64,000 nucleotides of DNA from positions 1 to 64,000 of IMG/VR virus record IMGVR_UViG_3300048592_000616; one strand, 5' to 3'. The notes below the pieces were generated by a model that worked only from the letters and a program-made list of their open reading frames with translations, was not told where the DNA came from and did not search any database. Positions 2,560 through 19,628 of this stretch are shown one piece after another. The position numbers and the translations under genes were made by a program. Position 1 is the first letter of the stretch; every line of letters starts with the position of its first letter. The DNA is from a virus.

Positions 2560-2971
2560 AGAAGAGTTGACCGTTATCGCCGGTGGGGCGATGGCTGATG
2601 AGTATTATGAGACATGGCTGCTGCTGGTCATTGTCTGGCGCAACATTTGGCGCAATTCGCGCACCGACTGGTCGCGCTACCGGTTGCGCGTCTGGGACAT
2701 GTTCAGTGATCGCGTGCGGTTGTCCGCGCGCATGGGGCGGGGGGTAGACGGTTTCATCTCCGAGATATGCGGCCACTTTCATATCAACGCGCTGGGCGTG
2801 AACAACGATGAGCGCGCGGCCGTCCAGAAACTGCTGGCCCTGCCCGTCGATGACCACCGGCGGATGATGAACCATCTACGAAACAATGCGCCGGTGGTCA
2901 TCGCGTTCCTGCGAATTTATCGTGACGCCGTGCGCGCCGAACTTGAAGGAGAGAGCAATGAAAAAGCGTAA
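2549..2971 (+). CDS. cas11: Cas11-like small subunit of type IV complex
   Basis: 140 aa, predicted almost entirely helical (YYETWLLLVIVWRN, RVRLSARMGRGVDGF, ALPVDDHRRMMNHL), with no catalytic motif. Small subunits diverge too far for a family match by eye, so the assignment rests on size, helical character and its slot between csf1 and csf2, as described for type IV-B loci. SD AAGGAAGAAGAG precedes ATG 2549. It overlaps both neighbours, which implies translational coupling and fixed stoichiometry. Small subunits line the inner face of the Cas7 filament. Confidence 0.65.
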   Translation: MPTKEELTVIAGGAMADEYYETWLLLVIVWRNIWRNSRTDWSRYRLRVWDMFSDRVRLSARMGRGVDGFISEICGHFHINALGVNNDERAAVQKLLALPVDDHRRMMNHLRNNAPVVIAFLRIYRDAVRAELEGESNEKA

Positions 2972-3902
2972 CATCATCCGTATTGCCGGTATTGCCACGC
3001 TGTCCGAGCCGCTTATCCACGGCGGCGAACGCAGCGGCGGCACCGTCACCGAGTTTCGCCGTGAAAAAGTCCGCGTAGACGGCGCGTTTGAGTACCTGCC
3101 GGTCTACTCCGGCAATGCCGTGGCCGGTCTGACGCGCGACAACTGCGCCTTCTGGTGCCTGGACCAGTTGCCGAACTTCAGTAAGTTCACCGATCTTCGC
3201 GCGTTCGACTTGCTCACCGGCGGCGGCCATCTAACGGCCGCCAAGGGAGACAAGTACGTCAACCTGTTTGAAGAAGCCGAGCTGCGTGAGATGTTCCCGG
3301 TCATCTCGCTGTTCGGCGGTAGCATCGGTAACCGCATTCTCGGCGGCCGTCTCGACTTCGCTAACTGGGTACCAATCTGTCAGGAGTGGCGCGACTACCT
3401 GCCGGAAGATATCCGGCCGCGGGCCGACGGCGTGTATATGTCCGACTTGTTGCAGGTGCTCAATTGGACGCGGCGCGACGACAAAAAGAACCGCGCCATG
3501 CAGGACCTGATCGACGCCGACACGCTGGCAGACTGGCAGCGTGAGACCGGCGAGCGCACCGAAAACGACGAGGCCGAGACAAGCGGCACGGCGATGTCCA
3601 TGCGCTATGGCTATGAAGCGCTGGCCACCGGCACGGAGTTGTATGTCGAGATGACCTTGCGCAACCCGTCTGATGTGGAACTCGGCGTGTTCTTCGGTGG
3701 TCTGACGTACTTCTACGAACGGCCGAAGATCGGCGGTCGCGGTAGTCGCGGTTGCGGCCGGGTCAGGCTGGACTTGCGCCAGTACAAAGTCACCGGCCCG
3801 GCGCAAATCGAAGAACCGATGGCTATCGGCGCTATGGAAGCGGCCGCCGCGCACTTGGCCGCGCATGAGGTGCAAATTCTGGAGGCGTTCAAGTCACTAT
3901 GA
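2958..3902 (+). CDS. csf2: Type IV CRISPR Csf2-like Cas7-family backbone protein
   Basis: 314 aa, ATG 2958 behind GAAGGAGAG. The N-terminus has the RAMP/Cas7 beginning IRIAGIATLSEPLIHGG. It is followed by FRREKVRV, LPVYSGNAVAGLTRD (the SGNA..G..RD signature of Csf2/Csm3-type Cas7) and, near the C-terminus, a glycine-rich loop IGGRGSRGCGRV typical of RAMP folds. Cas7 subunits polymerise along a guide RNA. No nuclease Asp of the Csm3 type could be assigned by eye. Length agrees with the Csf2 family (~300-350 aa). csf3 starts inside its stop (4-bp overlap). Confidence 0.88.
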   Translation: MKKRNIIRIAGIATLSEPLIHGGERSGGTVTEFRREKVRVDGAFEYLPVYSGNAVAGLTRDNCAFWCLDQLPNFSKFTDLRAFDLLTGGGHLTAAKGDKYVNLFEEAELREMFPVISLFGGSIGNRILGGRLDFANWVPICQEWRDYLPEDIRPRADGVYMSDLLQVLNWTRRDDKKNRAMQDLIDADTLADWQRETGERTENDEAETSGTAMSMRYGYEALATGTELYVEMTLRNPSDVELGVFFGGLTYFYERPKIGGRGSRGCGRVRLDLRQYKVTGPAQIEEPMAIGAMEAAAAHLAAHEVQILEAFKSL

Positions 3903-4732
3903 ACCACTATGAGCCGTTACGTGTCGTCGCCGAACTGCGCAGCCAGGTGATGGTGGAGCGATGGCCGATGCTGGACGCCGTCATGGCCGCCACGGTGATT
4001 GACGACGGCCAGTCACGCGAACGCGCCCGACAAGCGCGCCGGTACTACTTCTATCTCAAGAACTGCCGCAAACACGGCCGTCAGGAAACCGACGACTGGT
4101 ACCGGAAGAGCGAGAAATATGGTTATATCCCGGAGCCGGTCTGGAACGGCCACTTTCTGCCGCTTGGCGTCTTCGGTCACGGCCTGGAACACGGCGTCTG
4201 GACTTACCGCTGCTCCACGGCCACGCCGGTTGGTGACTATGAGCTGGACACCGTCCACTTCACCAAGCGCATCGACTGGCTTGGTGCGGTGGACTACGTT
4301 CAGGCCGCCGACCGGAAGATAAACATCGGCAAAGGCGCGTTCGTATCGCAGTACATACCGTATCAGACCGTCGCCGTGGAGGCGCTGGAATGGCACATCT
4401 TCGGCGTGGCCGAGGAAGTGGGGGCCATCCTTGACGCTGCGCTGAGCATCGGCAAGAAACGGAGGCGCGGTTACGGGGTCATCAAGCGCTGGCACATCGA
4501 ACAGGCGGCCGACGACGAGTCGGTGTTCACGCGCGACGGCTACCTCGCCCGGCCGGTGCCGGTGGACCTGCTCGATGAGATGCACATTACCGGCGACTTC
4601 GAAAAGGAATTCTGCGGCTTTCGGCCGCCGTATTGGCAATATAAAAACATTCGCACCTGCGCCGTGCGCGGCCGGAGGCAAGACCATGCGTTGGATGAAG
4701 CGCGATCTCAGACCGGTCGCCAACCTGTATAA
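3899..4732 (+). CDS. csf3: Type IV CRISPR Csf3-like Cas5-family protein
   Basis: 277 aa. Starts NHYEPLRVVAELRSQV and soon has LDAVMAA, the usual opening of Cas5-type RAMPs; a glycine-rich loop GKKRRRGYGVIKRW lies around residues 182-195; FRPPYWQYKNIRTCAV lies near the C-terminus, like the conserved PPYW...C ending I associate with Csf3. The last ~15 residues are an extension encoded over the start of the next gene. Cas5-type subunits cap the 5' handle of the guide RNA. No Cas6/Csf5 gene was found nearby, so guide processing is unexplained. Confidence 0.85.
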   Translation: MNHYEPLRVVAELRSQVMVERWPMLDAVMAATVIDDGQSRERARQARRYYFYLKNCRKHGRQETDDWYRKSEKYGYIPEPVWNGHFLPLGVFGHGLEHGVWTYRCSTATPVGDYELDTVHFTKRIDWLGAVDYVQAADRKINIGKGAFVSQYIPYQTVAVEALEWHIFGVAEEVGAILDAALSIGKKRRRGYGVIKRWHIEQAADDESVFTRDGYLARPVPVDLLDEMHITGDFEKEFCGFRPPYWQYKNIRTCAVRGRRQDHALDEARSQTGRQPV

Positions 4733-6390: not shown

Positions 6391-6403
6391 CAGGAGAAAC
6401 GAA

Positions 6404-7020: not shown

Positions 7021-7084
7021 CCGGCCCATGTGCGGCCGTGGCCTCGACCGGGCCTGGCGAGTGGCCTCATCAGAACACCCGTGC

Positions 7085-7211: not shown

Positions 7212-7214
7212 TTC

Positions 7215-7625: not shown

Positions 7626-7708
7626 ACCTATACTTGCTCAAATATCCATTATAATAAGTATGACTATCCAAGCAGGGGTGGCTTATCCCCCGCCCTATGG
7701 AGATGACA

Positions 7709-8158: not shown

Positions 8159-8161
8159 AGC

Positions 8162-8750: not shown

Positions 8751-8944
8751 GCGCCGCCCCCGGCCCCTCAGAGCGAGTCCTGGAGACCGACCGCTGGATC
8801 ATCGACCGGGAAAGCGACGGAACGTATACAGTCGTCGATATGCACGGCCGGTCGGTGCTGACCGGCATCCCGACGATCGAGGACGCCTACGCCGAAACCG
8901 GGCACCCGGCACCGGACGACACCCAGCCGGAGCAAACCCCATGA
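8747..8944 (+). CDS. Small hypothetical protein (65 aa)
   Basis: Starts MSAAPGPSERVLETDRWIIDRESDGTY, with a beta-hairpin-like middle (TVVDMHGRSVLTG). SD AAGGAGAG lies before ATG 8747. Overlaps genes on both sides by 4 bp (ATGA). No family recognised. Confidence 0.6.
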   Translation: MSAAPGPSERVLETDRWIIDRESDGTYTVVDMHGRSVLTGIPTIEDAYAETGHPAPDDTQPEQTP

Positions 8945-9291
8945 ATGACGACGATAACATCCAGCCCGGCTGCGGCTGCCGCTATGGGCTGATCAGTCTG
9001 CTCATGTTCGCGGCCGCCTTTGGGTTCCTGCTGTTGCTCATCAACGTCGGCCGCGCCGTCTACCCCACCCTCGCGCCGGAGCATCGCAATACGTTCATCT
9101 GGGCGTTCCTGGCCGGGTTGCTCATCTTTGGCGTGGTCAGCGGGGTATCAAAGATCTACGCCGGGCACATGGGTTCAGCCAACGGCAAACAGGTTGTAGC
9201 CGGGCTGGAAGGCGACGGCCGCTCCTGCATCAAGACAGTCATCGGCATCGTCGTGGTCCTGGCGCTCGTGGCGGCCGCGGTGCTGATATGA
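8941..9291 (+). CDS. Membrane protein (116 aa, three TM helices)
   Basis: Hydrophobic segments near residues 16-36 (GLISLLMFAAAFGFLLLLI), 50-68 (IWAFLAGLLIFGVVSGV) and 99-116 (VIGIVVVLALVAAAVLI), with a CGC motif before the first. Unknown role; possible holin-like or envelope-modifying protein. Confidence 0.6.
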   Translation: MNDDDNIQPGCGCRYGLISLLMFAAAFGFLLLLINVGRAVYPTLAPEHRNTFIWAFLAGLLIFGVVSGVSKIYAGHMGSANGKQVVAGLEGDGRSCIKTVIGIVVVLALVAAAVLI

Positions 9292-9317
9292 CGACAAGCA
9301 GATAACGAGGTTAAAAC

Positions 9318-10493
9318 ATGAAACAAGTAATTGCGACGGAACGAGTTCCGATCAAGCTGTGGCTTGATGACATGGAGGAAGGCGCATTGGCGCAGGCGAG
9401 GAACCTTGCCAACCTGCCGTTTGCCTTCAAGCATATTGCTATCATGCCGGACAGCCACCAGGGGTATGGTATGCCCATTGGCGGCGTTCTGGCGACGCAG
9501 CACTACATCGTCCCCAATGCTGTCGGGGTAGACATCGGCTGCGGCATGTGCGCCGTCAGGACGAACCTGGACCATGTGGAGCGAGACTCGCTTAAGGCTG
9601 TCATGGGGCGCGTGAGGCAGACGGTGCCGGTCGGGTTCAACTCGCACGAGACGGTCCAAAGCATCCCGCTGGAACCGACCGGCAAAGTCAGCGACCTCGT
9701 TCAGCGCCTGTGGGATCAGGCCCTATTCCAGGCCGGGACGCTCGGCGGCGGCAACCACTTCATTGAGTTCCAGGCCGGATCGGACGGCTACGTGTGGATC
9801 ATGATCCATAGTGGATCGCGCGGACTCGGCTTCAAAACGGCCGGGCACTACGCCAAGCTGGCCGAGGAGACCAACACGCGGTACTTCTCATCGGTTGATC
9901 CTAAGCAGGGGTTGTCATTCCTGCCGTTCGACGACGCGGCCGGTCGGCAGTACTTCGAGGACATGAAGTTCTGCACAGAGTACGCCTACCACAACCGCCG
10001 TCTGATGCTGGACAGAATTCAGGAGGCGCTTGCCGAAGTCGTGCCGTCAGTTACGTTCTCGCCGGAGATAAACCTGCCGCACAACTACGCCGCCTTTGAG
10101 AACCACTTCGGGCAGAACGTTATCGTTCATCGGAAGGGCGCGACGCAGGCCAAGGCGGGCCAGGTCGGCATCATCCCCGGCTCACAGGGTTCCGCGTCGT
10201 ACATCGTCGTTGGCAAGGGTAACCCTGACAGCTTTGAGTCCTGTTCGCACGGCGCGGGCCGCCGCATGGGGCGCAACGTGGCGCGAAAGACCTTGGACTT
10301 TGAGGGCGAGACCGAGCGGTTGAATGAGATGGGCGTGCTACACGCCATTCGCGGCGTTGGCGATCTGGATGAGGCCCCCGGTGCATACAAGGACATCGAG
10401 ACGGTGATGCTTAACCAAGAGGACCTGGTCGAGCGCTCGGTTCGGTTGGTGCCGCTGGGCGTCATCAAGAGTTCGGACGGTGGTTATGACTGA
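9318..10493 (+). CDS. rtcB: RtcB-family RNA-splicing ligase
   Basis: 391 aa, full length for the compact RtcB group. Seen: IMPDSHQGYGMPIGGV (~44-58), VGVDIGCGM (metal site), GGGNHFIEF, SGSRGLG, LPHNYAAFE, and SHGAGRRMGR around residue 310, the region of the histidine that is guanylylated in RtcB. The enzyme joins 2',3'-cyclic phosphate or 3'-phosphate RNA ends to 5'-OH using GTP and Mn2+. In a phage it could repair tRNAs cut by host anticodon nucleases. No tRNA gene or archease partner was seen. SD weak (GAGGTTAAAAC). Confidence 0.92.
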   Translation: MKQVIATERVPIKLWLDDMEEGALAQARNLANLPFAFKHIAIMPDSHQGYGMPIGGVLATQHYIVPNAVGVDIGCGMCAVRTNLDHVERDSLKAVMGRVRQTVPVGFNSHETVQSIPLEPTGKVSDLVQRLWDQALFQAGTLGGGNHFIEFQAGSDGYVWIMIHSGSRGLGFKTAGHYAKLAEETNTRYFSSVDPKQGLSFLPFDDAAGRQYFEDMKFCTEYAYHNRRLMLDRIQEALAEVVPSVTFSPEINLPHNYAAFENHFGQNVIVHRKGATQAKAGQVGIIPGSQGSASYIVVGKGNPDSFESCSHGAGRRMGRNVARKTLDFEGETERLNEMGVLHAIRGVGDLDEAPGAYKDIETVMLNQEDLVERSVRLVPLGVIKSSDGGYD

Positions 10494-11337
10494 CACACCG
10501 GCCGCACAAAGCCGCCAGCTGCGCGAGGTGCGGGTGAGCGTTGACGGCCGTGACGTCGGCATCATCCACCCCACCGACGTCACGATAACGCCACTGCCGG
10601 TGCAGTTCGACGCGGACGTTGCTGACGGTCTTCGGCCGTTCGAGGCGGCCGCGCCGATCTTGGAACCCGTATCGTTTTCAGTGACCAGCCAGATGACGGA
10701 CAAAACGGCTCGCGTGCTGTTTGGTCAAAAGGAGCACAACCCCGTGACTGACTTTATCGACATCACCAACCCGACCGCACTGCAGGCTCACAAAGACGAC
10801 TGGGTCTGCGACGAATACGACCGGCTCTCCGAAGACGTATACGACGCCTATATGGACTCGTTGATCGCCCATATCAGCTACGTCCGCGAGGCTGGGTTGC
10901 GACTGCGCGTGCCCGATCTTCTTTTGCAAGGGCACGATCAAAGCAAGTTCAGCGGCCGAGAGTTCTATGGCTACGCCATGCACTTTCAAGGCGGTGGCGC
11001 ACCGGCCGCGTTCGCGCGGGCATGGCTGCATCACATCCATCACAACCCGCATCATTGGCAGCATTGGCTGTTTGCCGACGGGTTCACGCCGAAAGGCAGC
11101 GACGTCGAGAACGGCGCTGTGCCGATGCCGGGCATGTATGCGCTGGAAATGGTGGCCGACTGGTTGGGCGCTGGCCGGACGTATACGGGATCGTGGGACA
11201 TGACCGAGTGGCTGGAGGTGAACGTGCCGCGCATTCGCGTTCACAGCGCCACGGCCGTTTACCTGGCCAGGATATTGAACGACCTCGGTTACCGTGTGGA
11301 CCCGGCCGCCTTTGGGTCCGCCCTCAAGCAAGGGTAG
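10486..11337 (+). CDS. DUF5662-like protein with an extra N-terminal domain
   Basis: 283 aa, ATG overlapping the rtcB end. Residues ~105-283 carry YVREAGLRLR, LLQGHDQSKFS.REFYGYAMHF, AWLHHIHHNPHHWQHW, MPGMYALEMVADWLGAG and W..VNVPRIRVH, the His/Asp-rich pattern of DUF5662 proteins (phage and bacterial, HD-like metal site suspected). Residues 1-90 are a separate beta-rich piece (LREVRVSVDGRDVG) not usual in that family. Coupling to rtcB hints at an RNA or nucleotide role, but that is inference. Confidence 0.75.
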   Translation: MTDTPAAQSRQLREVRVSVDGRDVGIIHPTDVTITPLPVQFDADVADGLRPFEAAAPILEPVSFSVTSQMTDKTARVLFGQKEHNPVTDFIDITNPTALQAHKDDWVCDEYDRLSEDVYDAYMDSLIAHISYVREAGLRLRVPDLLLQGHDQSKFSGREFYGYAMHFQGGGAPAAFARAWLHHIHHNPHHWQHWLFADGFTPKGSDVENGAVPMPGMYALEMVADWLGAGRTYTGSWDMTEWLEVNVPRIRVHSATAVYLARILNDLGYRVDPAAFGSALKQG

Positions 11338-11340
11338 TCA

Positions 11341-11853
11341 ATGGGACGCTTTTTATTTGCCCTGGTCGGTTGCGTGGGTTTGCTGCTTATTGCGGCTAGT
11401 TCCGTTATCGCCATGCCCGCCGACCCGCCGCCCCCGCCGCCCGCGCGGCCGCCGGGGCTGTTCATCACCGTCTACGACTGGTCGCTGGGCGGCATCAATT
11501 GCAATGAGGACTGCGGGCAGACCTCGCTGACGACGACCGGGCCGGAGTTGTTCGGGTGGACGGCCGCTTGCCCCGTCGCGTGGTTAGGGCACATCAACAC
11601 GACCGTCGTGACGATCTGGGGCCAGGAATACTGGTGTATTGATGCGTTCGGCGACGAAGTCAACCAGCGGCTGACGACGGTCAACGGCCGCCGGGTGTAT
11701 CGCATCGACATCGCCGACAGCCCGCCAGCCGCGCACCCGTGGAACCAGGAGTGGGTGCCGTGGGGCGACTGGTCGAAGGAGTGGCGGCCGATGGCTGAAT
11801 TCAACGAAATTCGCGAAGCGCGACGGGCGGCGACGGCCGTCCTGGGAGACTGA
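11341..11853 (+). CDS. Secreted protein, possible 3D/RlpA-like barrel
   Basis: 170 aa. Signal peptide residues 1-24 (LFALVGCVGLLLIAASSVIA), then a Pro-rich linker PPPPPPARPP and a domain with FITVYDWSLGG, CNEDCG, ACPVAWLGH and EYWCIDAFGD. The C.D.FG pattern resembles small double-psi barrel (3D domain) peptidoglycan-binding or lytic proteins. Assignment tentative. It may act in the periplasm or cell wall at lysis. Confidence 0.5.
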   Translation: MGRFLFALVGCVGLLLIAASSVIAMPADPPPPPPARPPGLFITVYDWSLGGINCNEDCGQTSLTTTGPELFGWTAACPVAWLGHINTTVVTIWGQEYWCIDAFGDEVNQRLTTVNGRRVYRIDIADSPPAAHPWNQEWVPWGDWSKEWRPMAEFNEIREARRAATAVLGD

Positions 11854-11859
11854 ACCGGG

Positions 11860-12093
11860 ATGACGGCTCCCGCATTCCCCGACCAGCCGCCGCCCGTGGG
11901 CGAGAGCGACGTGGTCCTGCCAGTGGTGGTGGCCGCGCTGACAGCCCGCGCCGAACAGGGGCGCGTCAAGTACGGCACCTACCTGCGGGTCCGCAACGGC
12001 CGCGACCCGTTGATCGACGCCTGGCAAGAAGCGGCCGACCTGCTGATGTACCTGACCCAGGCCATCATGGAGCGCGACGGTTCGCTGCCGTGA
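11860..12093 (+). CDS. MazG-like nucleotide pyrophosphohydrolase-type protein (77 aa)
   Basis: Residues ~30-70 read RAEQGRVKYGTYLRVRNGRDPLIDAWQEAADLLMYLTQAI, matching the common phage single-helix-bundle family (R...G..KYG..L...NGRDpL.DayqEalDl.mYl.qai) related to MazG/dUTPase-like NTP pyrophosphohydrolases. The EAADL motif supplies metal ligands. It would clean up or bias nucleotide pools during replication. Confidence 0.65.
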   Translation: MTAPAFPDQPPPVGESDVVLPVVVAALTARAEQGRVKYGTYLRVRNGRDPLIDAWQEAADLLMYLTQAIMERDGSLP

Positions 12094-12142
12094 CAACGAC
12101 GACGCTTTGCGCTATCGTTGCGGCCACACGGAGGTAGACGCG

Positions 12143-12715
12143 ATGAGACTCAAACTGGTTGGAGTTGCTTTGATGATGTTGGCTGTGCTGGCCGCGTGCG
12201 GCGGCGCGGCCGATGGCGAGGCGTCGGCCGTGGCCACGGTGCCGCCAACGGTTACCGCGCGGCCGACGCCGACCGCGACGCCCGTGCGGCTGCCGGAGAC
12301 GGCCGACGCGCTATGCCGGTGGATCGGCAACCAAATTCTGGTAGAGCCTGACCGGCTGACCGAGTGCGCGGTGGATGACGAACGTGCTTCCAGCGCCTGG
12401 CTGCGGATCGCTTATCGCATGGATCGCGGCGCGATGGACCGGGCGGCGCTGCTGACGGCGGCCGAGGTGTCCGAAATTCTGCACACCCTGACCGAGGTCG
12501 GATACCAGGACTATGCCCGCGTCGAGATCGTCGCCACCTACCCCACCAAGGACAAGTTCGGCAACACCGAGGAGACGGCCGCCTTCCGGGCCGACTGGGC
12601 ACTCTCGACGCTGGACAAAGTGAACTGGGCGGGCATCGACTTCCCGGCGCTGCTGGACCTATCGTCGCCGCCGCGCCTGGAGATGTCTGACGCCTTCGCG
12701 GCCGCCATCCGCTGA
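12143..12715 (+). CDS. Predicted lipoprotein (190 aa)
   Basis: ATG 12143 with GGAGG ten bases upstream. N-terminal signal MRLKLVGVALMMLAVLAACGG has a lipobox LAAC, then a Thr/Pro-rich tether and a globular domain (TADALCRWIGNQILVEPDRL) containing two Cys. Exported and anchored. Possible superinfection-exclusion (moron) protein, but this is inferred only from being a phage-encoded lipoprotein. Confidence 0.65.
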   Translation: MRLKLVGVALMMLAVLAACGGAADGEASAVATVPPTVTARPTPTATPVRLPETADALCRWIGNQILVEPDRLTECAVDDERASSAWLRIAYRMDRGAMDRAALLTAAEVSEILHTLTEVGYQDYARVEIVATYPTKDKFGNTEETAAFRADWALSTLDKVNWAGIDFPALLDLSSPPRLEMSDAFAAAIR

Positions 12716-12812
12716 CCCGACTCCCCCCACCCTGCCCCAGGCCGTTTCGCTGTCGCTGAAAATTAGAACATATGTACGCTGCCGGTTTGGCGGCCCGGCC
12801 GCGTTGCGCATC

Positions 12813-12842
12813 GTTGCCACCAGTTTCCACCAGTTGGTTGAC
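12813..12842 (+). repeat. 10-bp direct repeats running into a -35 box
   Basis: GTTGCCACCA, GTTTCCACCA and GTTGGTTGAC follow each other with exact 10-bp period; the last contains the -35 TTGAC of the promoter at 12838. A divergent member of the GGTTSC-N4-GGTTGC family found in other intergenic regions. Confidence 0.7.
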
Positions 12843-12893
12843 AGGCCGTCGCGTTATATGTTATGATGTGGTCATACCAAACGAACAGGGCAG
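12838..12893 (+). promoter_or_regulatory. Promoter of the shared TATGAT-N4-KCATAC class
   Basis: TTGACA 12838-12843, spacer 18, TATGAT 12862-12867, then N4, TCATAC, CAAACGAAC. The -10 forms half of an inverted repeat with TCATAC. Drives the 12929-14075 operon. The upstream stretch 12716-12812 holds no gene I can support. Confidence 0.8.
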
Positions 12894-12928
12894 CGCCCCG
12901 CTAGGGCCGAAAGGCAAGGAGACCTGAG

Positions 12929-13171
12929 ATGCAAAACCCAACCGTAGCTTCTGACTTGAGCCGAACCAACGCCGAGCTAACCGTCCGCGCCATGCGGCAC
13001 GCCTCCCCGATGGTCAGCCCGCGAGTATTCGCGGAGGGCAACGAGGAGGACACTTACCGGGTGGACGTGATAGGGTACATGAGCACGACCGGTCACCATA
13101 GCATCGCCATGTGGGCGAAGGGCTTCACCACCGCCCTGGAGATCGCGGCGACGGACATGGTGGCGAAATGA
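12929..13171 (+). CDS. Small hypothetical protein (80 aa)
   Basis: SD AAGGAGACC before ATG. Starts MQNPTVASDLSRTNAELTVRAMRHASP and ends AATDMVAK; the middle (YRVDVIGYMSTTGHHSIAMWA) suggests a small alpha/beta fold. First gene of the operon from the 12838 promoter. Its stop overlaps the next ATG. Confidence 0.65.
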   Translation: MQNPTVASDLSRTNAELTVRAMRHASPMVSPRVFAEGNEEDTYRVDVIGYMSTTGHHSIAMWAKGFTTALEIAATDMVAK

Positions 13172-13413
13172 GCCAGCTATTGCACGAGGTCGAGCGGGTC
13201 TTTGCCCGCGTGGTCAACAAGGAGATCGGCGGCGGCAACATCGAGGTCTCGATGAACGGCCTGGCCGACGGCCGGATGCAGGTCTGCATATGCGGCCCGC
13301 TGGCCGACGTAGAGGCGGCCGCGCCGGTGCTGGCCGAGACGGGGCTGGCGCTCCTCGACGAGACCGTATTCCCCGACGATCCCGAATTCAAGTACATGCG
13401 CTGGGCTAAGTAG
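13168..13413 (+). CDS. Small hypothetical protein (81 aa)
   Basis: Starts MSQLLHEVERVFARVVNKEIGGG and shows a beta-alpha-beta pattern with VCICGPLADVEAAAPVL. ATGA overlap with the previous gene. No family recognised. Confidence 0.65.
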   Translation: MSQLLHEVERVFARVVNKEIGGGNIEVSMNGLADGRMQVCICGPLADVEAAAPVLAETGLALLDETVFPDDPEFKYMRWAK

Positions 13414-13437
13414 GGACCGGCGCGCAAAGGAGACACC

Positions 13438-13695
13438 GTGAGCAGCATTGATCGATACATCGAGGTTTGGAAGGACGGCGACCCGGAGGATACCACCGAG
13501 TGGCTGGTGCTGCTGATGCAAGGCGGCCAGCTGCCGGAGCCGCCGGATGCAGTCGATGTGCTGGGCACCTTCCCCACCCTCAATGAGGCCCGCGCCTTCG
13601 CCGGGCGCGAGGCGGCCGAGCGTGGGCTGGAGGTATTCGAGGAGGACTTGGGCGGCGGGTATCCCCCGGCCGCGTGGGAGGCGCGGCCGTCATGA
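13438..13695 (+). CDS. Small hypothetical protein (85 aa), GTG start
   Basis: SD AAAGGAGAC before GTG 13438. Starts MSSIDRYIEVWKDGDPEDTTEWLVLLMQ; LGTFPTLNEARAFAGREA resembles the helix after a short sheet in phage accessory proteins that handle small signals. Function unknown. Confidence 0.65.
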   Translation: MSSIDRYIEVWKDGDPEDTTEWLVLLMQGGQLPEPPDAVDVLGTFPTLNEARAFAGREAAERGLEVFEEDLGGGYPPAAWEARPS

Positions 13696-14075
13696 GTCTT
13701 TGCGACTTCCACCAGTGCGACCTGTGTATCTATGTGTCCCCAGCGGGCATTGAGTGCCACGTGGCGGCCGATCGGCGGGTGCAAGAGATAGGACCGGAGC
13801 CGCCCCTGCCCAGCCTGACGGCCGATGACCACGAGTGGGCCGAGTGGCGTCGCCTTTTCCACAAGTACGCCAATGAGATATTCTCGGGCGAGACCCAGCC
13901 CATCGGCGGTCCGCGCGACGGGGAACACCGCACCTTCCAGACGTGGGCCGACTTGCTGGCCTATGTGGGCGACGTGGCGGCCGATGGGTACCGCGTGCCG
14001 GACTGGGTGGTTGGGACTATCCAGAGGGAGGTGGGCAATTCGCCGCAAGCCGCACCGGCCGATAAAATACCCTAG
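13692..14075 (+). CDS. Hypothetical protein (127 aa) with clustered Cys/His
   Basis: Starts MSLCDFHQCDLCIYVSPAGIECH: four Cys and two His within 25 residues, a probable zinc knuckle. The rest is Trp-rich and helical (DDHEWAEWRRLFHKYANEIF). ATGA overlap with the previous gene. Last gene of this operon, followed by a hairpin at 14095. Confidence 0.6.
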   Translation: MSLCDFHQCDLCIYVSPAGIECHVAADRRVQEIGPEPPLPSLTADDHEWAEWRRLFHKYANEIFSGETQPIGGPRDGEHRTFQTWADLLAYVGDVAADGYRVPDWVVGTIQREVGNSPQAAPADKIP

Positions 14076-14094
14076 CAGACTACTAACTCAAGGC

Positions 14095-14126
14095 CAGAAG
14101 GGCGAGACCGATGTCTCGCCTTTCTG
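14095..14126 (+). terminator. Hairpin at end of operon
   Basis: CAGAAGGGCGAGAC (14095-14108) pairs with GTCTCGCCTTTCTG (14113-14126) with one G-T pair and a 4-nt loop. There is no long U tract after it, so termination may be partial. On the opposite strand it could also act. Confidence 0.6.
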
Positions 14127-14251
14127 CATCCAGGTCGCGGTTGGGATGTATGACTTTCCGCAACAACCCGACCCTGTGTAATTTTGGCCCGTTTTTTACA
14201 ATGACCACCGCGGCCGTTGTAGCCGAATACACTGCCTGCCCGGTTTGCGTC

Positions 14252-14410
14252 TTGACGGGGCGCGGGCTTTGCGGTAGTGTATCGGAGGACTAACCAAGCA
14301 AGGCTTGGCATGGCCAGGCAAGGCGGGGCCAGGCCTGGCGGGGCGAGGCCCGGCCTGGCGAGGCCCGGCATGGCAGGGAAAAAGGGGACGGCTTTCTGCC
14401 GTCCCCTTTT
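14252..14410 (+). ncRNA. Candidate small RNA made of NNGGC repeats
   Basis: Promoter-like TTGACG (14252-14257), 17-bp spacer and TAGTGT (14275-14280) face a repeat array (14300-14374) that ends directly at an intrinsic terminator (14379-14410). A transcript would be roughly 120-130 nt. GGAGG at 14284 has no start codon at useful distance and no ORF fits, so an RNA product is more likely than a peptide. Confidence 0.4.
14300..14374. repeat. Pentanucleotide NNGGC array, 15 units
   Basis: Fifteen consecutive 5-mers all end in GGC: AAGGC, TTGGC, ATGGC, CAGGC, AAGGC, GGGGC and so on to ATGGC. Only the first two bases vary. Period 5 is not coding, and neither strand has a plausible gene through it. 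Confidence 0.95.
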
Positions 14411-14416
14411 CGTTTC
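14379..14416. terminator. Bidirectional intrinsic terminator
   Basis: AAAAAGGGGACGGC (14379-14392), loop TTTCT, GCCGTCCCCTTTT (14398-14410). A/T tracts on both sides allow termination of rightward transcripts and of the minus-strand gene whose stop codon lies at 14417. Confidence 0.9.
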
Positions 14417-17400
14417 TCACTCCGCGCAGGTGATGACCTGGCGGCGGTTGTCCGGCCGCTGGCCCGGCGCGTGGGCCTCGCTGATCTCGCTGCGCTGGCC
14501 GTCGGCCTTCGTCCAGGTCACCAGCCCGTACATCCGCGAGAAGGTCCACGTCTCCTCGACGCGGCCGTTGGGCAGCAGCCACTGCAAGAGGATGCAGTCC
14601 CCAACGAATATCCCATTGACCATCATTGCCTTCTGCGCGGCCGCCAGGCGGATCGTTGACGGCTGGCGGCGCTCCTCGGTCGTTTGGCAGTCGGCGATCC
14701 GCTGCCAGCGCACGAGCGGGTTACGCGGGAACGTCTCCCCCACGGCCATCCGGCGCGGTGCCCAGACGCTGCCATAGACCCCCGGCGCGCCATAGAGCGT
14801 GTACATCATCCCGCCGCCCGGCGACGTGTCGCGGCCGCGATAGATGGCCTTGTCGTCCGCGCCGAAATGCTCCCACTCGGCCGATAGCTCGTTGCCCTTC
14901 GTCAGGTAGTACCAGCCCGGCCGGTGCGGGTCGCGCTGGGTCTGGTGGCGCGCCTGGCTGCCGCTGCTGTGGCGCACCTCGAAGAGCGGCCCACGGCCGT
15001 CCGGGCCGAGCATCCCGGTCATGTAGGGCAGGAGGTCGATCTTGGTCGGGTCGGGTGGCTGCGGCTCCGGCTTCGGCGGCTGAGGCTTGGGTGGCGTCGG
15101 CGTTGGCGTCGGTGGTTTCGGCGCGGGCAGCGCGTCCTCCGGCCCGACGACGCGGACGGCGTCCCACTCCCCCACCGGCGCGTAGTAGACCAGCGTCTCC
15201 CCGGCCCGGCCGCCCGCGCGGCGGTAGGCATAGCTCACGCCGTCGATGACCTCGCGCTGCTCATCGGAGAGCGGATAGAGACCGTCCTCCAGCATCGCCG
15301 CCTGCAAAGCGAAGGTCGGCGTGTTGGCGATCCCCGGCGCGGCCGTGCCCAGCCGCCACATTGTCTCGGCCAGCGTCGGCGGCCTCGGCTCCGGCACGCC
15401 GCGCGGGATGAGGTACGCGGCCAGGTCGTCCGCCGTGCCGTTGAAGCGGTTCAGGTCGATCCGGGCGCTTGACGCGCCATAGCTCGGCCCGTGGCCGTCG
15501 TTGGCGTACTGCCAGAAGGTCCAGCCCCGGCCGCTGGCCCACGGCTCCGGCACGAGCGGCCGCGTGCCCTTGGTCCAGTTGGCGATCCATAGGTCGAAGG
15601 CCGCGCCCCATTTCGGCGCGCCCAGGGCCGAGCGCCAGTAGCTGTAGTTGGTATAGAGGATCGGCAGCCGGTCGATACCCATCTCGTCGAGGCGTACTTG
15701 CAGGCGCTCCAGGAACTCCAACACAAACGCCGCCCGCTCGGTCACGGTCAGGCCGTTGAAGTTCCCGTCCTCCAGGTCCAGCACCGGCGGTAGGTCGCAG
15801 CCGTGCCGCTCGATGACGGCCGCGAACGTCTCCACCTGCTCCTTGGGCGGATCGAAGAAGTGCAGGTAGTGGTAGAAGCCATAGGGTAGCCCGGCCGCCA
15901 TCGCCGCCGGGGCATACTCGTCCACCCGCTCGTCCTGGTGCTTGCCATACGACGCGCGGATGAAGGCGAAGTCAACCTTGGCGGCCGCCTTGCCAAAGTC
16001 CATCGCCCCCTGCCACTTGGAGACGTCGATCCCGATGACCTCGCCGCCCGGCTCCGGCTTCGGCGGTTCGGGCTTCGGCGGTTCCGGCGCGGGCGGTTCG
16101 GGTTCGGTGACGGCCGCGCGCAGGGACCAGCCGTCCAGGAAGAAATTGTTGGAAATGCCCCACTCGGCCGACATGTGGACGGCCAGCTTGAGCGGCCCGC
16201 CGCCGTGGGTGAAGGCGGTCGATATCTCGCGGTAGACCGGCCCGGTCGCGGCCGCAGGCCAGATGTCCAGCGGCCCGGCGACGGCCTGGTCGTTGACCTT
16301 GAGCGTATAGCGCGCCGAGTTGGTCTCCACCCGGTAGTCGCGCTTCTTGTCCGTCATGCGGTAGAAGTCCAGCCAGCCGCGCCACGTGAACACGTACCGA
16401 CCAGCCGGTAGGTCGGGGAACTCCTGGACCAGGCGCGCCCAGAACGGTCGCCCGCCCGCGAACAGCTTGTAACACCACTGCCCATCGCGGATGAACCGCG
16501 CCGCCTCGTCGGCCGGTAGCTGCGCGGCCGACTTGTGGACGCCCTCCGGCTCGCCATACGCCTGGCCGGAGATCGGCGACTTGCCCGTATTCCAGGCGAA
16601 GCGCCAGCCGCGCGGCTGCTGGCTGGACTGGCTGATGTCGTCCCAGCCGCCCTCAAAGCCGGGGTTGGCGAGTAGCTCGGCCGTGCCCGGCGTGGGTGGC
16701 TTCGGCGGGTCCACCGGCGACGGCGTTGGCGCGTTGTCTTTGATGCGGTCCAGCAGGGCAACCTCGACGGCCGTGCCGGAGATGTCCCACTCCTTCCACA
16801 CGCCCACGCTCCCCACCGTAAACACGGCCGCGCCGACCACATAGTCATCCTCGCGGATGCGCCGGTCATACCAGGCCAGCATGTCGGCGTACTTCTGTGG
16901 GTCCAGACCCATCGCCCGCCATGACCCCACCGGCGCGCCCTTCGGCGTCACCGAGGCCACATCGTCACACCCGGCCTCGGTGATGATGAGCTGCGTGTCC
17001 CCCAGTCCGGCCGGGGCCAACACCGTGTCCCACACGTAGCGATAGCGCAGGGCAGCCCAGCCCCAGGGATAAGAGCGGTCAGGGCGGCCGTGCCACACAT
17101 CGGCCGTCAGGTTGCCGTTGGCGTCCACCTGTTTCCAGCCTACCCCATAGTCGGCCTCGTAGCCCATGTACTCGTGGAGGGCGATGTAGTGGCCGTTGTC
17201 GCGGGCGTGGCGAACGGCCGGGAGCAGATGAGGCCAGATGTCCATGCTTGGCGTGCCCACGGCGAAGCTGAAGTTGGCCCGCTTCTTGCCGATGGACTCA
17301 TACAGCTTCATCATCTCGATGCAGTAGGCGCTGTACCAGGCCGCCTCATTCGCGTTGTCCGGGGGTATCTCGTTGTCATCCTCCCACACGTCAATGCGCG

Positions 17401-17701
17401 GGTTGGCGGTGTAGCGGTTGACCCGCGGCCGGTTAGCCCCGGCGTAGATGTCGGTCTGCGCCGCGAACCGCACCGCGGCCGCGGCCTTCGGCGTCTCGCC
17501 GCGGTGCATCAGCGCCTTCCAGTCGGTCAACCCCAGGGCGTCGTCCTGCTGGTCCAGCTTGCCGACAACGAGCGGACCGGCCGGGACAGACGATGACGCC
17601 CCCAGCCCCATCGGGTCGAACTTGTAGAGCACCGGCCCGGCCCCGATCCACTTTGCCAGACCGGGCGAACCGATAAAGTGCGGCCCCAGCTTACTTGACA
17701 T
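14417..17701 (-). CDS. Giant chimeric endolysin: GH-A-like glycosidase + lectin-like domain + GH25 lysozyme
   Basis: 1094 aa. Start ATG at 17701 (MSSKLGPHFIG) preferred because GGGAGG lies just upstream; an 11-residue longer GTG form is possible. Domains: ~1-335 a TIM-barrel-like glycosidase (DVWEDDNE, LHEYMGYE, ITEAGCDD near 237); ~345-530 a jelly-roll carbohydrate-binding-like domain (NPGFEGGWD ... LAVHMSAEWG); Pro-Glu/Lys linker; ~550-760 GH25 lysozyme (GIDVSKWQG, FAFIRASYG, YHYLHF, PPVLDLED with the catalytic DxE, ILYTNYSYW); second Pro-rich linker; ~870-1094 a Trp-rich C-terminal domain, possibly wall-binding. No signal peptide is evident. Cleaves peptidoglycan between MurNAc and GlcNAc. 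The only clear minus-strand gene. Confidence 0.88.
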   Translation of the reverse strand: MSSKLGPHFIGSPGLAKWIGAGPVLYKFDPMGLGASSSVPAGPLVVGKLDQQDDALGLTDWKALMHRGETPKAAAAVRFAAQTDIYAGANRPRVNRYTANPRIDVWEDDNEIPPDNANEAAWYSAYCIEMMKLYESIGKKRANFSFAVGTPSMDIWPHLLPAVRHARDNGHYIALHEYMGYEADYGVGWKQVDANGNLTADVWHGRPDRSYPWGWAALRYRYVWDTVLAPAGLGDTQLIITEAGCDDVASVTPKGAPVGSWRAMGLDPQKYADMLAWYDRRIREDDYVVGAAVFTVGSVGVWKEWDISGTAVEVALLDRIKDNAPTPSPVDPPKPPTPGTAELLANPGFEGGWDDISQSSQQPRGWRFAWNTGKSPISGQAYGEPEGVHKSAAQLPADEAARFIRDGQWCYKLFAGGRPFWARLVQEFPDLPAGRYVFTWRGWLDFYRMTDKKRDYRVETNSARYTLKVNDQAVAGPLDIWPAAATGPVYREISTAFTHGGGPLKLAVHMSAEWGISNNFFLDGWSLRAAVTEPEPPAPEPPKPEPPKPEPGGEVIGIDVSKWQGAMDFGKAAAKVDFAFIRASYGKHQDERVDEYAPAAMAAGLPYGFYHYLHFFDPPKEQVETFAAVIERHGCDLPPVLDLEDGNFNGLTVTERAAFVLEFLERLQVRLDEMGIDRLPILYTNYSYWRSALGAPKWGAAFDLWIANWTKGTRPLVPEPWASGRGWTFWQYANDGHGPSYGASSARIDLNRFNGTADDLAAYLIPRGVPEPRPPTLAETMWRLGTAAPGIANTPTFALQAAMLEDGLYPLSDEQREVIDGVSYAYRRAGGRAGETLVYYAPVGEWDAVRVVGPEDALPAPKPPTPTPTPPKPQPPKPEPQPPDPTKIDLLPYMTGMLGPDGRGPLFEVRHSSGSQARHQTQRDPHRPGWYYLTKGNELSAEWEHFGADDKAIYRGRDTSPGGGMMYTLYGAPGVYGSVWAPRRMAVGETFPRNPLVRWQRIADCQTTEERRQPSTIRLAAAQKAMMVNGIFVGDCILLQWLLPNGRVEETWTFSRMYGLVTWTKADGQRSEISEAHAPGQRPDNRRQVITCAE

Positions 17702-17816
17702 GGCATCCTCCCACGGCCGCTGCGAGGCGGCCACTGTCTCCCCCTGCTCCCGTCGTCAATTCCCGTCTGTCGCTCGAATTCATGACATCCACCTCCGGCC
17801 GATATTGTATCACAAC

Positions 17817-17852
17817 GGTTGCGGATGGTTGCGAAGTCGGCCGGTTGGTTGC
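17817..17852 (+). repeat. 36-bp phased element, long form
   Basis: GGTTGC at 17817, 17827 and 17847, all in 10-bp register, with AGTCGGCCGGT in the gap. The same architecture occurs at 44379-44414 with 29 of 36 positions identical. Looks like a multi-site binding element on one face of the helix. Confidence 0.8.
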
Positions 17853-17908
17853 GGATTTGGGCAGCGGCCGCCCGGCACATGAACCTTACCTATACGAAGG
17901 AACAGACC

Positions 17909-17924
17909 GCAACCGGCGCGAACC
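17909..17924 (-). repeat. Phased GGTT element, inverted copy
   Basis: GCAACC-GGCG-CGAACC, that is GGTTCG-N4-GGTTGC on the minus strand. It faces the plus-oriented copy at 17936. Confidence 0.65.
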
Positions 17925-17935
17925 GGGAAGTTGAT

Positions 17936-17951
17936 GGTTGCAGTTGGTTGA
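17936..17951 (+). repeat. Phased GGTT element overlapping a -35 box
   Basis: GGTTGC-AGTT-GGTTGA; the second half contains the first bases of the -35 TTGACA (17948-17953). Identical to the copy at 42148-42163. Confidence 0.8.
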
Positions 17952-17994
17952 CAAGGGGTGCAGGTTATGGTATGATACTGTCATACTAAACGAC
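17948..17994 (+). promoter_or_regulatory. Promoter of the shared TATGAT-N4-KCATAC class, best copy
   Basis: TTGACA 17948-17953, spacer 17, TATGAT 17971-17976. GTATGA (17970-17975) and TCATAC (17981-17986) form a perfect inverted repeat around the start region; TAAACGAC follows. Drives 18021 onward. Confidence 0.85.
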
Positions 17995-18020
17995 AGGCAC
18001 CCGCCCTAAAGGAGACCGAG

Positions 18021-18368
18021 ATGAGCCAGTTTTTCTACACCATAGCTTCCTACCGCAGCGTTGATGAGTTGAGCGGCCGTGAGGCGGCGCAGATCGCCGA
18101 TGAGAATTGCACCGACTGCCACGGCGAAGGCCGGTACTACCAGGACGGCGACTGGGTGCCGTGGGGCAACGGCTGGGACAAGACCCCCGATGGCTACTGC
18201 ATCTGCGGGTGTGTCGCCGAGGCATGGGAGACCATGGCCGCGGAACTGAGCGAATTCGAGGACACCTGCGACGATGACGGCCCGTGGTCGCCGCGGATGC
18301 TGTACCTGATGGAGCGGTACGGTGATGAGGAGCAGCAGGCGGCCGCCCGCGCCCTGCTGACCGCGTAG
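18021..18368 (+). CDS. Cys-rich zinc-knuckle protein (115 aa)
   Basis: SD AAAGGAGACC before ATG. CTDCHGEGRYY and CICGC give two pairs of Cys arranged like a DnaJ-type zinc knuckle (CxxCxG ... CxC). The rest is acidic and helical (FEDTCDDDGPW, YGDEEQQAAARALL). First gene of the operon; likely a small DNA- or protein-binding factor. Confidence 0.65.
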   Translation: MSQFFYTIASYRSVDELSGREAAQIADENCTDCHGEGRYYQDGDWVPWGNGWDKTPDGYCICGCVAEAWETMAAELSEFEDTCDDDGPWSPRMLYLMERYGDEEQQAAARALLTA

Positions 18369-18375
18369 CAGTTTC

Positions 18376-18399
18376 GGGGCGGCCCCTGCGGACCGCCCC
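18376..18399 (+). terminator. GC-rich hairpin after the zinc-knuckle gene
   Basis: GGGGCGG (18376-18382) pairs with CCGCCCC (18393-18399). There is no T-run, so it may be a pausing or processing hairpin rather than a full terminator. Confidence 0.4.
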
Positions 18400-18452
18400 A
18401 CCCTATCAACCCAGCGGCCGCGGGCGGCCGCACAACAACAACGGAGGCAACG

Positions 18453-18674
18453 ATGGTTTTCAAGTATTGGTTCGACTTTGTAGTGACCGATGAGAACGGC
18501 GAGGAGTACGCCGCCTTGTTCCCGGTTGACATTGAGGCGTCTTCGGCGACGATGGCCGAGGCCCAGATGGCCGCCCTGTGGCGACATCACCTGTTGCCCG
18601 TGCTCCCGTCCGGCCGCGTGGGCGGCGGCTACTATCGCGAGGGCGAGTTGCCGGAGGGGTTCGAAGATGACTAG
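18453..18674 (+). CDS. Small hypothetical protein (73 aa), possible antitoxin-like partner
   Basis: SD ACGGAGGC before ATG 18453. Starts MVFKYWFDFVVTDENGEEYAALFPVDIEASSATMAEAQ; a three-strand then helix pattern loosely like HicB N-terminal domains, but without its DNA-binding tail. It overlaps the HicA-like gene by 8 bp, which is the main reason to consider a toxin-antitoxin pair. Confidence 0.5.
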   Translation: MVFKYWFDFVVTDENGEEYAALFPVDIEASSATMAEAQMAALWRHHLLPVLPSGRVGGGYYREGELPEGFEDD

Positions 18675-18921
18675 GGCAACCGAGTGGCGCGAGTGCAAGG
18701 ACGACCGCGACTGGGTGACCGTCGCCAAGCGCAAGGGGTACGAGGTCCGGTCGGGCAAGGGATCGCATACGTGCCTGGAGGTTAACGGCCGAAGCATCCC
18801 TGTTCCCAAAGGCGAGACGCGCAAGGGGACCAAGTCGTCTATCCTGCGGTCGCTGGCCGCAGCGGGGGCGATGGTCTTCGCCGGGTTCCTGGTGTTTACG
18901 ATGCTGGCCACGGTCGCGTGA
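18667..18921 (+). CDS. HicA-like protein with C-terminal membrane anchor (84 aa)
   Basis: VAKRKGYEVRSGKGSHTCLEV ... SIPVPKGETRKGTKSSILRSL matches the HicA mRNA-interferase fold (GSH motif with the active His, then P......k.gt..sIlr). Residues ~66-84 (AGAMVFAGFLVFTMLATVA) are an added transmembrane helix, unusual for HicA. It could be a membrane-tethered RNase or an inactive dsRNA-binding derivative. Ends before a terminator. Confidence 0.6.
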   Translation: MTRATEWRECKDDRDWVTVAKRKGYEVRSGKGSHTCLEVNGRSIPVPKGETRKGTKSSILRSLAAAGAMVFAGFLVFTMLATVA

Positions 18922-18935
18922 CCGAGGCATGAGAG

Positions 18936-18961
18936 AAGCCGCTCCAACGAGCGGCTTTTTT
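18936..18961 (+). terminator. Intrinsic terminator
   Basis: AAGCCGCT (18936-18943), short loop, AGCGGCTT (18950-18957), then a T tract. Ends the 18021-18921 operon. Confidence 0.88.
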
Positions 18962-18972
18962 GTTGGCCGTTA

Positions 18973-19002
18973 TTGACAGTTGTTAAGGCGTGCCGTTATA
19001 AT
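18973..19002 (+). promoter_or_regulatory. Sigma70-type promoter
   Basis: TTGACA 18973-18978, spacer 18, TATAAT 18997-19002. Near-consensus, just downstream of the terminator at 18936. Reads into the RHH / membrane / FtsK-like operon. Confidence 0.85.
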
Positions 19003-19051
19003 TCCAAGTGGGTGTGGTGTAAGCGGCCGCCCGGCCGCGGAGGGTAGAGAA

Positions 19052-19255
19052 TTGGATAACGACGCAGCAGACGACGTAGACGACGGCCGTATGGTGACGG
19101 TCAGCATTTCGGTGGATCAGTCGCTGGTGGACGCTCTGGACGACGAGAAGCGCCGCCAGGACCGTTCGCGCTCGTGGATCGTGCGTCAGGCCATCGCGCA
19201 GTATCTCGAGAAGCAACAGAGCCGCCGAGCGCCGGAGGGTCCGCGCCATGCGTAA
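19052..19255 (+). CDS. Ribbon-helix-helix (CopG-type) regulator, 67 aa
   Basis: TTG start at 19052 behind GCGGAGGG; ATG 19091 is an alternative. MVTVSISVDQSLVDALDDEKRRQDRSRSWIVRQAIAQYLEKQ is a classical RHH: one beta strand, two helices with SRSWIVRQAI. Likely autoregulates its own operon. Overlaps the next gene by 8 bp. Confidence 0.75.
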   Translation: MDNDAADDVDDGRMVTVSISVDQSLVDALDDEKRRQDRSRSWIVRQAIAQYLEKQQSRRAPEGPRHA

Positions 19256-19628
19256 GGACGGCACGCTCCTACTGGTCTTGTTGGCCCTGGCGCTGGCCGG
19301 GCTGGGGATGATGAGCTTCTCGGCCCGCGGCGCGGCGCAGGACAGCTACACCTACGAGTCGCTCCCCAAGTCCGGCTACCAGATGGTCATAACCTCGCGC
19401 ACGACCGCGGCGGCCGATGACGGCGGCGGTCGCCTGTTGCTGTTGGGCGTGGGGCTGATGGCGTCGGTCGTCGTGTTTCTCGGCGGCTCGCTGTTGGCGA
19501 TGAACGGCGGGGCGAAGGTCTTGAAGGAGTTTCGGCTGACGCGCCGCGCCCAGCGCCGGTCGTCCCGCGCCCCGGCCGCGCCCGGTCGCCTGCCCGCCCT
19601 GCCGTCGCTGTACGAGGACACACCATGA
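19248..19628 (+). CDS. Membrane protein with two TM helices (126 aa)
   Basis: N-terminal hydrophobic helix (LLLVLLALALAGLGMM, ~6-22), a short exported loop with SYTYESLPKSGYQM, a second helix (LLLLGVGLMASVVVFLGGSLLAM, ~63-86) and a basic cytoplasmic tail (RLTRRAQRRSSR). Coupled to the ATPase downstream; may be its membrane partner. Confidence 0.6.
   Translation: MRKDGTLLLVLLALALAGLGMMSFSARGAAQDSYTYESLPKSGYQMVITSRTTAAADDGGGRLLLLGVGLMASVVVFLGGSLLAMNGGAKVLKEFRLTRRAQRRSSRAPAAPGRLPALPSLYEDTP

What the first reader, a model, noticed from the sequence alone, without database searches (positions are those of the whole stretch)
14252..14410. NNGGC pentamer array framed by promoter and terminator: possible repeat RNA
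Fifteen 5-bp units ending in GGC lie exactly between a promoter-like pair and a strong terminator, so the locus has the form of an RNA gene whose body is a period-5 repeat. GCC-rich strands could sponge a host factor, anneal to SD-like GGC tracts or act as a protein decoy.
Basis: partly seen in the sequence, partly recalled or inferred. Interest (0 to 1): 0.65.

Follow-up and report, generated by a model that had tools for sequence, protein, structure and literature searches.

The report
Orphan VIPR guide RNA targeting vipr
The NNGGC array is almost certainly a guide RNA of the recently described VIPR system (a phage-borne relative of CRISPR), carried by a phage with no visible VIPR protein, and decoding it with the published reading rule points at the VIPR protein gene of rival phages, so it may be a guide-only counter-weapon.

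Summary
The array is real: fifteen perfect NNGGC units (14300-14374, +); the next-best period-5 GGC run in the window is 3. The flanking promoter is weak; the 3' hairpin is strong. Degenerate NNGGC arrays are a widespread phage feature, embedded sense-strand beside one gene family that a profile search identifies as Vipr (PDB 36pp, E=3.6e-43; Csm3/Cas7-like fold). So the window array is a VIPR guide RNA (vrRNA), a system described in a 2026 preprint (PMC13142463). What the preprint text does not describe is this arrangement: the 73-kb contig has no Vipr detectable at E<=10, i.e. an orphan guide. Decoded with the published 1-nt-skip rule, its 15 dinucleotides best match the conserved N-terminal codons of vipr genes (23-25 of 30 letters, sense strand, in frame; 0 of 200,000 unit permutations score as well against a vipr-site profile). 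Its tail resembles those of VIPR loci L255/L266, whose vipr it also matches. Most likely it is loaded into a rival's Vipr and silences the rival's vipr gene. Not shown: transcription, loading, an exact target, absence of Vipr from the unsampled genome.

The parts
14300..14374 (+). vrRNA guide body: 15 NNGGC units; NN = AA TT AT CA AA GG CA CT GG GA CC CT GA CC AT
   Evidence: Read directly; only array in the contig; 9-16 such units define vrRNAs (PMC13142463)
14375..14413 (+). vrRNA 3' tail: AGGG, then 13-bp hairpin 14380-14392/14398-14410 (loop TTTCT); may double as intrinsic terminator between convergent genes
   Evidence: Fold dG -25, z -5.1; closely similar anatomy in L255 and L266 vrRNA tails, with both-side changes at 4 of 10 pairs over 6 tails
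14252..14280 (+). candidate promoter TTGACG-17-TAGTGT, weak (8/12); alternative -10 TACAAT at 14197-14202
   Evidence: not distinguishable from chance
14096..14125 (+). terminator-like hairpin GGCGAGAC-CGAT-GTCTCGCC-TTTCT ending the upstream operon, so the array probably has its own promoter
   Evidence: Read directly; not called by the consensus scan
14417..17734 (-). convergent gene, 1105 aa with a GH25-lysozyme-like stretch; array lies in the intergenic gap before it
   Evidence: ORF list; GH25 assignment from sequence motif only
2961..3902 (+). type IV CRISPR Cas7 (Csf2) homolog; the phage's own RAMP protein, considered and judged unlikely as partner of the array
   Evidence: PADLOC typeIV_Cas7 2.8e-57; NCBIfam Csf2 5e-18; PDB 7jhy Csf2 4e-13
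3899..4732 (+). type IV CRISPR Cas5 (Csf3) homolog
   Evidence: PADLOC typeIV_Cas5 8e-36; NCBIfam Csf3 4e-12

Best explanation
The locus encodes an orphan VIPR guide RNA (vrRNA) of about 110 nt: 15 NNGGC units followed by a hairpin tail. Each GGC would be held by one Vipr (RAMP) subunit and each NN would read two target bases, skipping one. Decoded that way the guide reads [KN][FL][IM][HQ][KN]G[HQ]LG[DE]PL[DE]P[IM], which resembles the conserved N-terminal codons of vipr genes (LLMHNG-LADPLDP). Because the phage shows no vipr gene, the guide most likely enters a Vipr supplied by a competitor in the same cell (its tail resembles that of clades L255/L266) and directs it to repress the competitor's own vipr gene. 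Shown here by sequence: array, tail similarity, association of such arrays with Vipr, match to vipr. Taken from the preprint: loading, skip rule, repression. Inferred: expression, hijacking, and absence of Vipr from the unsampled part of the genome.
For: Degenerate arrays and Vipr co-occur: 91 with / 37 without versus 3/113 for monotonous arrays, Fisher p=2.5e-32; same strand as vipr 134:2; arrays start a few nt after the stop codon. The family is Vipr: PDB 36pp_D E=3.6e-43 over the full length; AlphaFold pLDDT 92, Foldseek top hits Csm3/Cas7. The NN spectrum of 3,500 units correlates best with codon positions 1-2 (r=0.54; other frames -0.28 to 0.23), as the skip rule predicts. Window guide: 24/30 against vipr in 2.1 Mb of array loci, reached by 2/1600 permutations, and about 3.5% of permutation top hits lie in vipr sense frame; only skip 1 gives it. 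Profile of 32 vipr sites not selected with the guide-derived pattern: 29.2 bits versus permuted mean -21, sd 9.9, max 19.2, 0/200,000; best other natural array -3.5. In 12 vipr loci fetched by protein homology, that site is the best match in 11 and ties in the twelfth. Tail similarity to L255/L266. No Vipr in the contig at E<=10.
Against: No exact target was found: the best match is 25/30 (24/26 over units 3-15), while the preprint reports mostly perfect natural targets among its top matches; unbiased 8- and 10-unit exact scans of IMG/VR found no better target, and 25/30 is near the chance maximum for a blind scan of a collection that size. The target site was picked post hoc as the best match. 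The contig is a linear fragment of unknown completeness, so a vipr gene could lie outside it. No transcription data; the promoter is weak. Across 26 other vipr-less loci only one other array (L067, p=0.007) hints at a vipr target, about what chance allows, so anti-vipr targeting is not a general property of orphan arrays. The tail comparison rests on tails chosen by eye.
Confidence: 0.6

Rival explanations
1. An ordinary vrRNA of a complete VIPR system: the phage's own vipr gene lies in the part of the genome missing from the 73-kb fragment, and the guide arms it against other VIPR phages.
For: Contig is linear with unknown completeness; the closest relative of its Csf2 gene, contig G001, carries its own vipr plus arrays; the preprint reports vrRNAs that target other VIPR systems.
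Against: Arrays normally sit within a few hundred nt of vipr; here 14 kb upstream and 59 kb downstream hold none. A single isolated array far from vipr would be unusual.
Confidence: 0.25
2. A relic: the phage lost vipr and the array is a decaying leftover with no current function.
For: No vipr, one array only, weak promoter.
Against: 15 of 15 GGC triplets are intact (45 of 45 letters), and tail and decoded target are in good order; decay should have broken some.
Confidence: 0.1
3. The phage's own type IV-like Cas7/Cas5 pair (Csf2 2961-3902, Csf3 3899-4732) uses the NNGGC RNA as guide.
For: They are RAMP proteins without a CRISPR array nearby.
Against: Skermania phage SPI1 has a homologous Csf2 but no GGY array; in G001 the arrays sit at vipr, not at Csf2; the tail is like those of Vipr loci.
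Confidence: 0.04
4. One reading: a repeat RNA that sponges a host factor, anneals to SD-like tracts or acts as a protein decoy.
For: It is probably a structured small RNA; GGC triplets are the constant part.
Against: Does not explain the strict link with Vipr, the codon-like NN spectrum, or the match to vipr.
Confidence: 0.02
5. Neutral or slippage-driven microsatellite.
For: Period-5 GGC repeats do arise as microsatellites in bacterial genomes.
Against: Those are monotonous (mostly 1-4 NN types); this one has 9 NN types in 15 units, as in phage vrRNAs.
Confidence: 0.01

Closest known systems
VIPR (Viral Interference Programmable Repeat) vrRNA, e.g. Escherichia phage SUSP1 (PMC13142463, bioRxiv 2026, doi 10.64898/2026.04.26.720920)
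   Same: 9-16 GGY/NN units, about 100 nt, structured 3' tail, phage-borne, target readable with the 1-nt-skip rule; targeting of other VIPR systems is reported there
   Different: No vipr or vap gene seen in the contig; single isolated array; decoded target is the vipr gene itself at its most conserved N-terminal codons; GGC only (no GGU); tail is a plain hairpin like L255/L266, not compared with the SUSP1 pseudoknot
Racr, RNA-based anti-CRISPRs (solitary repeat units; PMC10651486)
   Same: Phage-encoded non-coding RNA that resembles the guide of an RNA-guided system and would be taken up by the enemy's proteins
   Different: Racrs mimic the CRISPR repeat and block the system; this RNA carries a complete programmed guide that appears to aim at the effector's own gene; unrelated system; not tested experimentally
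Phage-borne mini-CRISPR arrays without cas genes (from own knowledge, not searched here)
   Same: Orphan guides that rely on an effector provided by the cell or a rival
   Different: CRISPR repeats and contiguous spacers versus GGC scaffold and noncontiguous dinucleotides

Membership tests
VIPR vrRNA | 9-16 tandem GGY/NN (YNNGG) units with constant GGY and hypervariable NN | tested here: met
   15 perfect NNGGC units, 9 NN types
VIPR vrRNA | Structured 3' tail after the repeat tract | tested here: met
   13-bp hairpin, z -5.1; both-side changes with L255/L266 tails, 93% of cells paired versus 40-67% when slid
VIPR vrRNA | Encoded beside a vipr (RAMP) gene | tested here: not met
   No Vipr in the 73-kb contig at E<=10; contig may be incomplete. 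The preprint does mention vrRNA-bearing satellites, but whether they lack vipr is not stated in the text read
VIPR vrRNA | Expressed as a ~100-nt small RNA | not testable with these tools
   Predicted length about 110 nt (14300-14413); no RNA data
VIPR vrRNA | Co-purifies with Vipr | not testable with these tools
   Needs biochemistry
VIPR vrRNA | NN dinucleotides specify a mobile-element target under the 1-nt-skip rule | tested here: inconclusive
   Best target vipr N-terminus 23-25/30, 0/200,000 permutations on a site profile, only skip 1; no perfect target found
Vipr protein (family A, phrog_4652-like) in related loci | RAMP fold homologous to SUSP1 Vipr | tested here: met
   36pp_D E=3.6e-43 full length; Csm3/Cas7 by Foldseek
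CRISPR array | Direct repeats of 20-50 nt with unique spacers | tested here: not met
   No such repeats in 1-20000
Microsatellite | Near-identical units | tested here: not met
   NN positions are hypervariable

The most novel reading that the evidence does not exclude
A guide-only anti-VIPR element: a phage that carries no Vipr encodes a complete vrRNA whose tail fits a rival clade's Vipr and whose code is tuned to the most conserved N-terminal codons of that clade's vipr gene (with the skipped base at the wobble position), so that the rival's own effector is turned to shut off its own gene.
Probability: 0.45. Interest if true: 0.82.

Novelty: new variant of a known kind. Interest (0 to 1): 0.66.

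Why it matters
It would show that RNA-guided phage warfare has a counter-layer made of RNA alone: an orphan guide that disarms the enemy's guide system by reprogramming it against itself. It also gives independent support for the VIPR code: the NN spectrum of some 3,500 units from over 100 viral loci follows codon positions 1-2, and VIPR loci are common in uncultivated phages and in named mycobacteriophages, Gordonia phages and a cyanophage, where the genes are listed as hypothetical proteins.

Tried and rejected
Sponge, decoy or SD-annealing RNA: no support. Microsatellite: rejected by NN diversity and by the contrast with bacterial genomes. Translated repeat peptide: not pursued; the arrays lie between genes. 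Two-tier G-quadruplex (GG every 5 nt): does not explain the invariant C; not pursued. Rfam: only a sub-threshold match to STnc380 (23.9 versus gathering 60 bits), driven by the hairpin; rejected. A direct paper search for the pentamer found nothing. Relatives of the neighbouring lysin gene: none in IMG/VR. Skip-rule self-test on 185 other arrays against held loci: no targets above chance under any skip, as expected if targets are elsewhere. Guide pattern with <=3 mismatches in 794 bacterial genomes: one hit (L327), not in vipr, at chance level. An alignment-based search for more vipr loci failed because no stretch was conserved enough.

Full report
1. Observation. The window is part of an uncultivated virus record of 73,423 bases, 65% GC. 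At 14300-14374 (+) there are fifteen consecutive perfect NNGGC units; every other GGC period-5 run in the window is 3 units or shorter, and no second GGY/NN array exists in the contig. Downstream lies a 13-bp hairpin (14380-14410) that folds at -25 kcal/mol. Upstream, a hairpin at 14096-14125 closes the preceding operon; a convergent gene occupies 17734-14417.

2. The same kind of array elsewhere. 108 of those 120 loci carry degenerate arrays (NN nearly uniform), in genomes from 39 to 76% GC. The scan of bacterial genomes, run with ten exact units, also hit its limit, but there only 7 of 120 loci are degenerate and the rest are monotonous microsatellites; among viral loci with at least 10 units, 81 are degenerate and 4 monotonous. 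These are the first rows of each scan, not random samples.

3. The partner gene. Degenerate arrays often start a few nucleotides after the stop codon of a same-strand gene. One family of ~190-220 aa dominates (phrog_4652-like, unknown function in PHROGs). A profile of it finds the family in 85 of the 120 viral loci; the association with degenerate versus monotonous arrays is 91/37 versus 3/113 (p=2.5e-32) and the array is on the gene's strand in 134 of 136 comparisons. Among 50,697 named phages the protein hits and the array hits fall on nearly the same set for this branch of the family: mycobacteriophages, Gordonia phages and cyanophage Cy-LDV1. AlphaFold gives a confident model (pLDDT 92) whose best PDB matches are Csm3/Cas7 RAMP proteins, and the profile matches 'SUSP1 Vipr protein' 36pp_D at 3.6e-43 over its full length.

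4. What is known. Vipr and its guide are described in PMC13142463: vrRNAs of 9-16 GGY/NN units with a 3' tail, loaded into Vipr, bind dsDNA by the NN dinucleotides with one skipped base per unit, the skip usually at the codon wobble position, and repress competing phages; [quoted passage not shown] The window array fits the RNA definition. In my data the NN spectrum of about 3,500 units correlates with codon positions 1-2 (r=0.54) and not with other frames (-0.28 to 0.23), an independent sign that the published rule holds in uncultivated phages.

5. The window guide is an orphan. No Vipr is found in the contig with PHROG or own profiles, to E=10. Of 30 viral contigs with an array and no nearby vipr (a few of these arrays are monotonous), only 3 have vipr elsewhere; some are long (105, 48, 41, 38 and 37.5 kb), so guide-only contigs are not rare, although all may be fragments.

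6. The target. Decoded with skip 1 the guide is AAx TTx ATx CAx AAx GGx CAx CTx GGx GAx CCx CTx GAx CCx ATx. Scanned against all held loci, the top three matches and four of the best five with vipr in the locus are the same site in vipr genes: codons of (L)(L)MHNG-LADPLDP. Statistics: 24/30 in 2.1 Mb of array loci is reached by 2 of 1600 unit permutations, and only about 3.5% of permutation top hits lie in vipr in that frame; against vipr genes, skips 0, 2 and 3 give 17-20. A relaxed pattern, built from the guide and the vipr motif together, found 14 IMG/VR stretches, all in vipr, in frame, up to 25/30; this scan is partly circular and only shows specificity. Twelve further vipr loci were fetched by protein homology: in eleven the site is the best match in the whole 3.5 kb and in the twelfth it ties; these loci are homologous, so they are not twelve independent tests. 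A position profile of 32 such sites, none chosen with the guide-derived pattern, gives the guide 29.2 bits; 200,000 permutations reach at most 19.2 and the best other natural array -3.5. Because the site was found as the best match, roughly a thousand possible windows per gene should be allowed for; the result survives that (z about 5). No perfect target was found, so the true target is probably an unsampled vipr of this clade, if the reading is right.

7. The tail. L255 (three arrays) and L266 (two arrays) have tails of the same build as the window: (A)RGGG, purine run plus GGG as 5' arm, complementary CCCYYYY as 3' arm (aligned). Over the six tails, 93% of stem cells pair versus 40-67% when slid, with changes on both sides at four of ten pairs. 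L255's vipr matches guide units 2-12 with 21 of 22 letters. So the clade whose tail the guide resembles is also one whose vipr it matches, which is what a hijacking guide needs. The tails were picked by eye, so this is supportive rather than a test.

8. Mechanism and rivals. I commit to: orphan vrRNA, loaded into a rival's Vipr, repressing the rival's vipr. Shown: anatomy, family, absence in the contig, match to vipr. From the preprint: loading and repression. Inferred: expression and hijack. The main rival is that the phage has its own vipr outside the fragment; in that case the guide is an ordinary VIPR-versus-VIPR weapon. The phage's own type IV-like Csf2/Csf3 pair is an unlikely partner: Skermania phage SPI1 has such a Csf2 and no array, and in contig G001, which has both systems, the arrays sit at vipr.

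9. Verdict. The RNA identity is close to certain (about 0.93, on sequence grounds); targeting of vipr is likely (about 0.75); guide-only hijack is plausible (about 0.45-0.6). New variant of a known, very recently described kind.

Noticed in passing
window 2961-4732 (+): The phage encodes type IV CRISPR Cas7 (Csf2) and Cas5 (Csf3) homologs, overlapping by 4 nt, with no CRISPR array found in the first 20 kb. The nearest relative (L267, 63% identity) is on a 100-kb viral contig that also has a VIPR system.
   Followed up: partly
L329 (LittleE), L328, L332, L115, L027, L012: within 90 nt downstream of arrays: Nine vrRNA arrays in six loci are followed by tRNA-like minihelices (short acceptor-like stem plus GGTTCGANTCC T-arm), versus 1 in matched random places. 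This suggests maturation by tRNA-processing enzymes; not mentioned in the main text of the VIPR preprint.
   Followed up: partly
L249 2846-3097 (Mycobacterium phage BobaPhett 37845-38096): The annotated gene 51 of BobaPhett lies wholly inside a vrRNA array and is probably not a protein gene; gene 52 next to it is vipr, listed as hypothetical protein.
   Followed up: yes
L333 (Escherichia phage wV8, 58566-62105): GenBank already marks repeat_region DR_4 on both sides of gene 95, which is vipr: repeats beside the vrRNAs of this Felixounavirus were annotated as plain direct repeats.
   Followed up: no
L252 (Gordonia phage Ecliptus) and L329 (LittleE): VIPR cassettes sit between tail-chaperone or tail genes and the tape-measure gene, in a structural operon: a moron-like insertion of the whole module.
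   Followed up: no
L249 2908-3080 and many other loci: In multi-array loci the arrays follow each other with a one-base phase slip (GGCAGGC) every 9-13 units, e.g. exactly 59 nt apart in BobaPhett; probably the staggered or overlapping vrRNA architecture.
   Followed up: no
L334-L339: vipr homologs lie on large plasmids of Azospirillum and Bradyrhizobium, at least two of the six with a clear GGY array close by.
   Followed up: partly
L067 around 652 (-, reverse-complement coordinates): A second vipr-less contig whose 9-unit array matches a vipr gene (L070, antisense) at 16 of 18 letters, p=0.007 before correction for 33 tests.
   Followed up: partly
window 9318-10493 (+): The phage carries an RtcB RNA ligase.
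   Followed up: no
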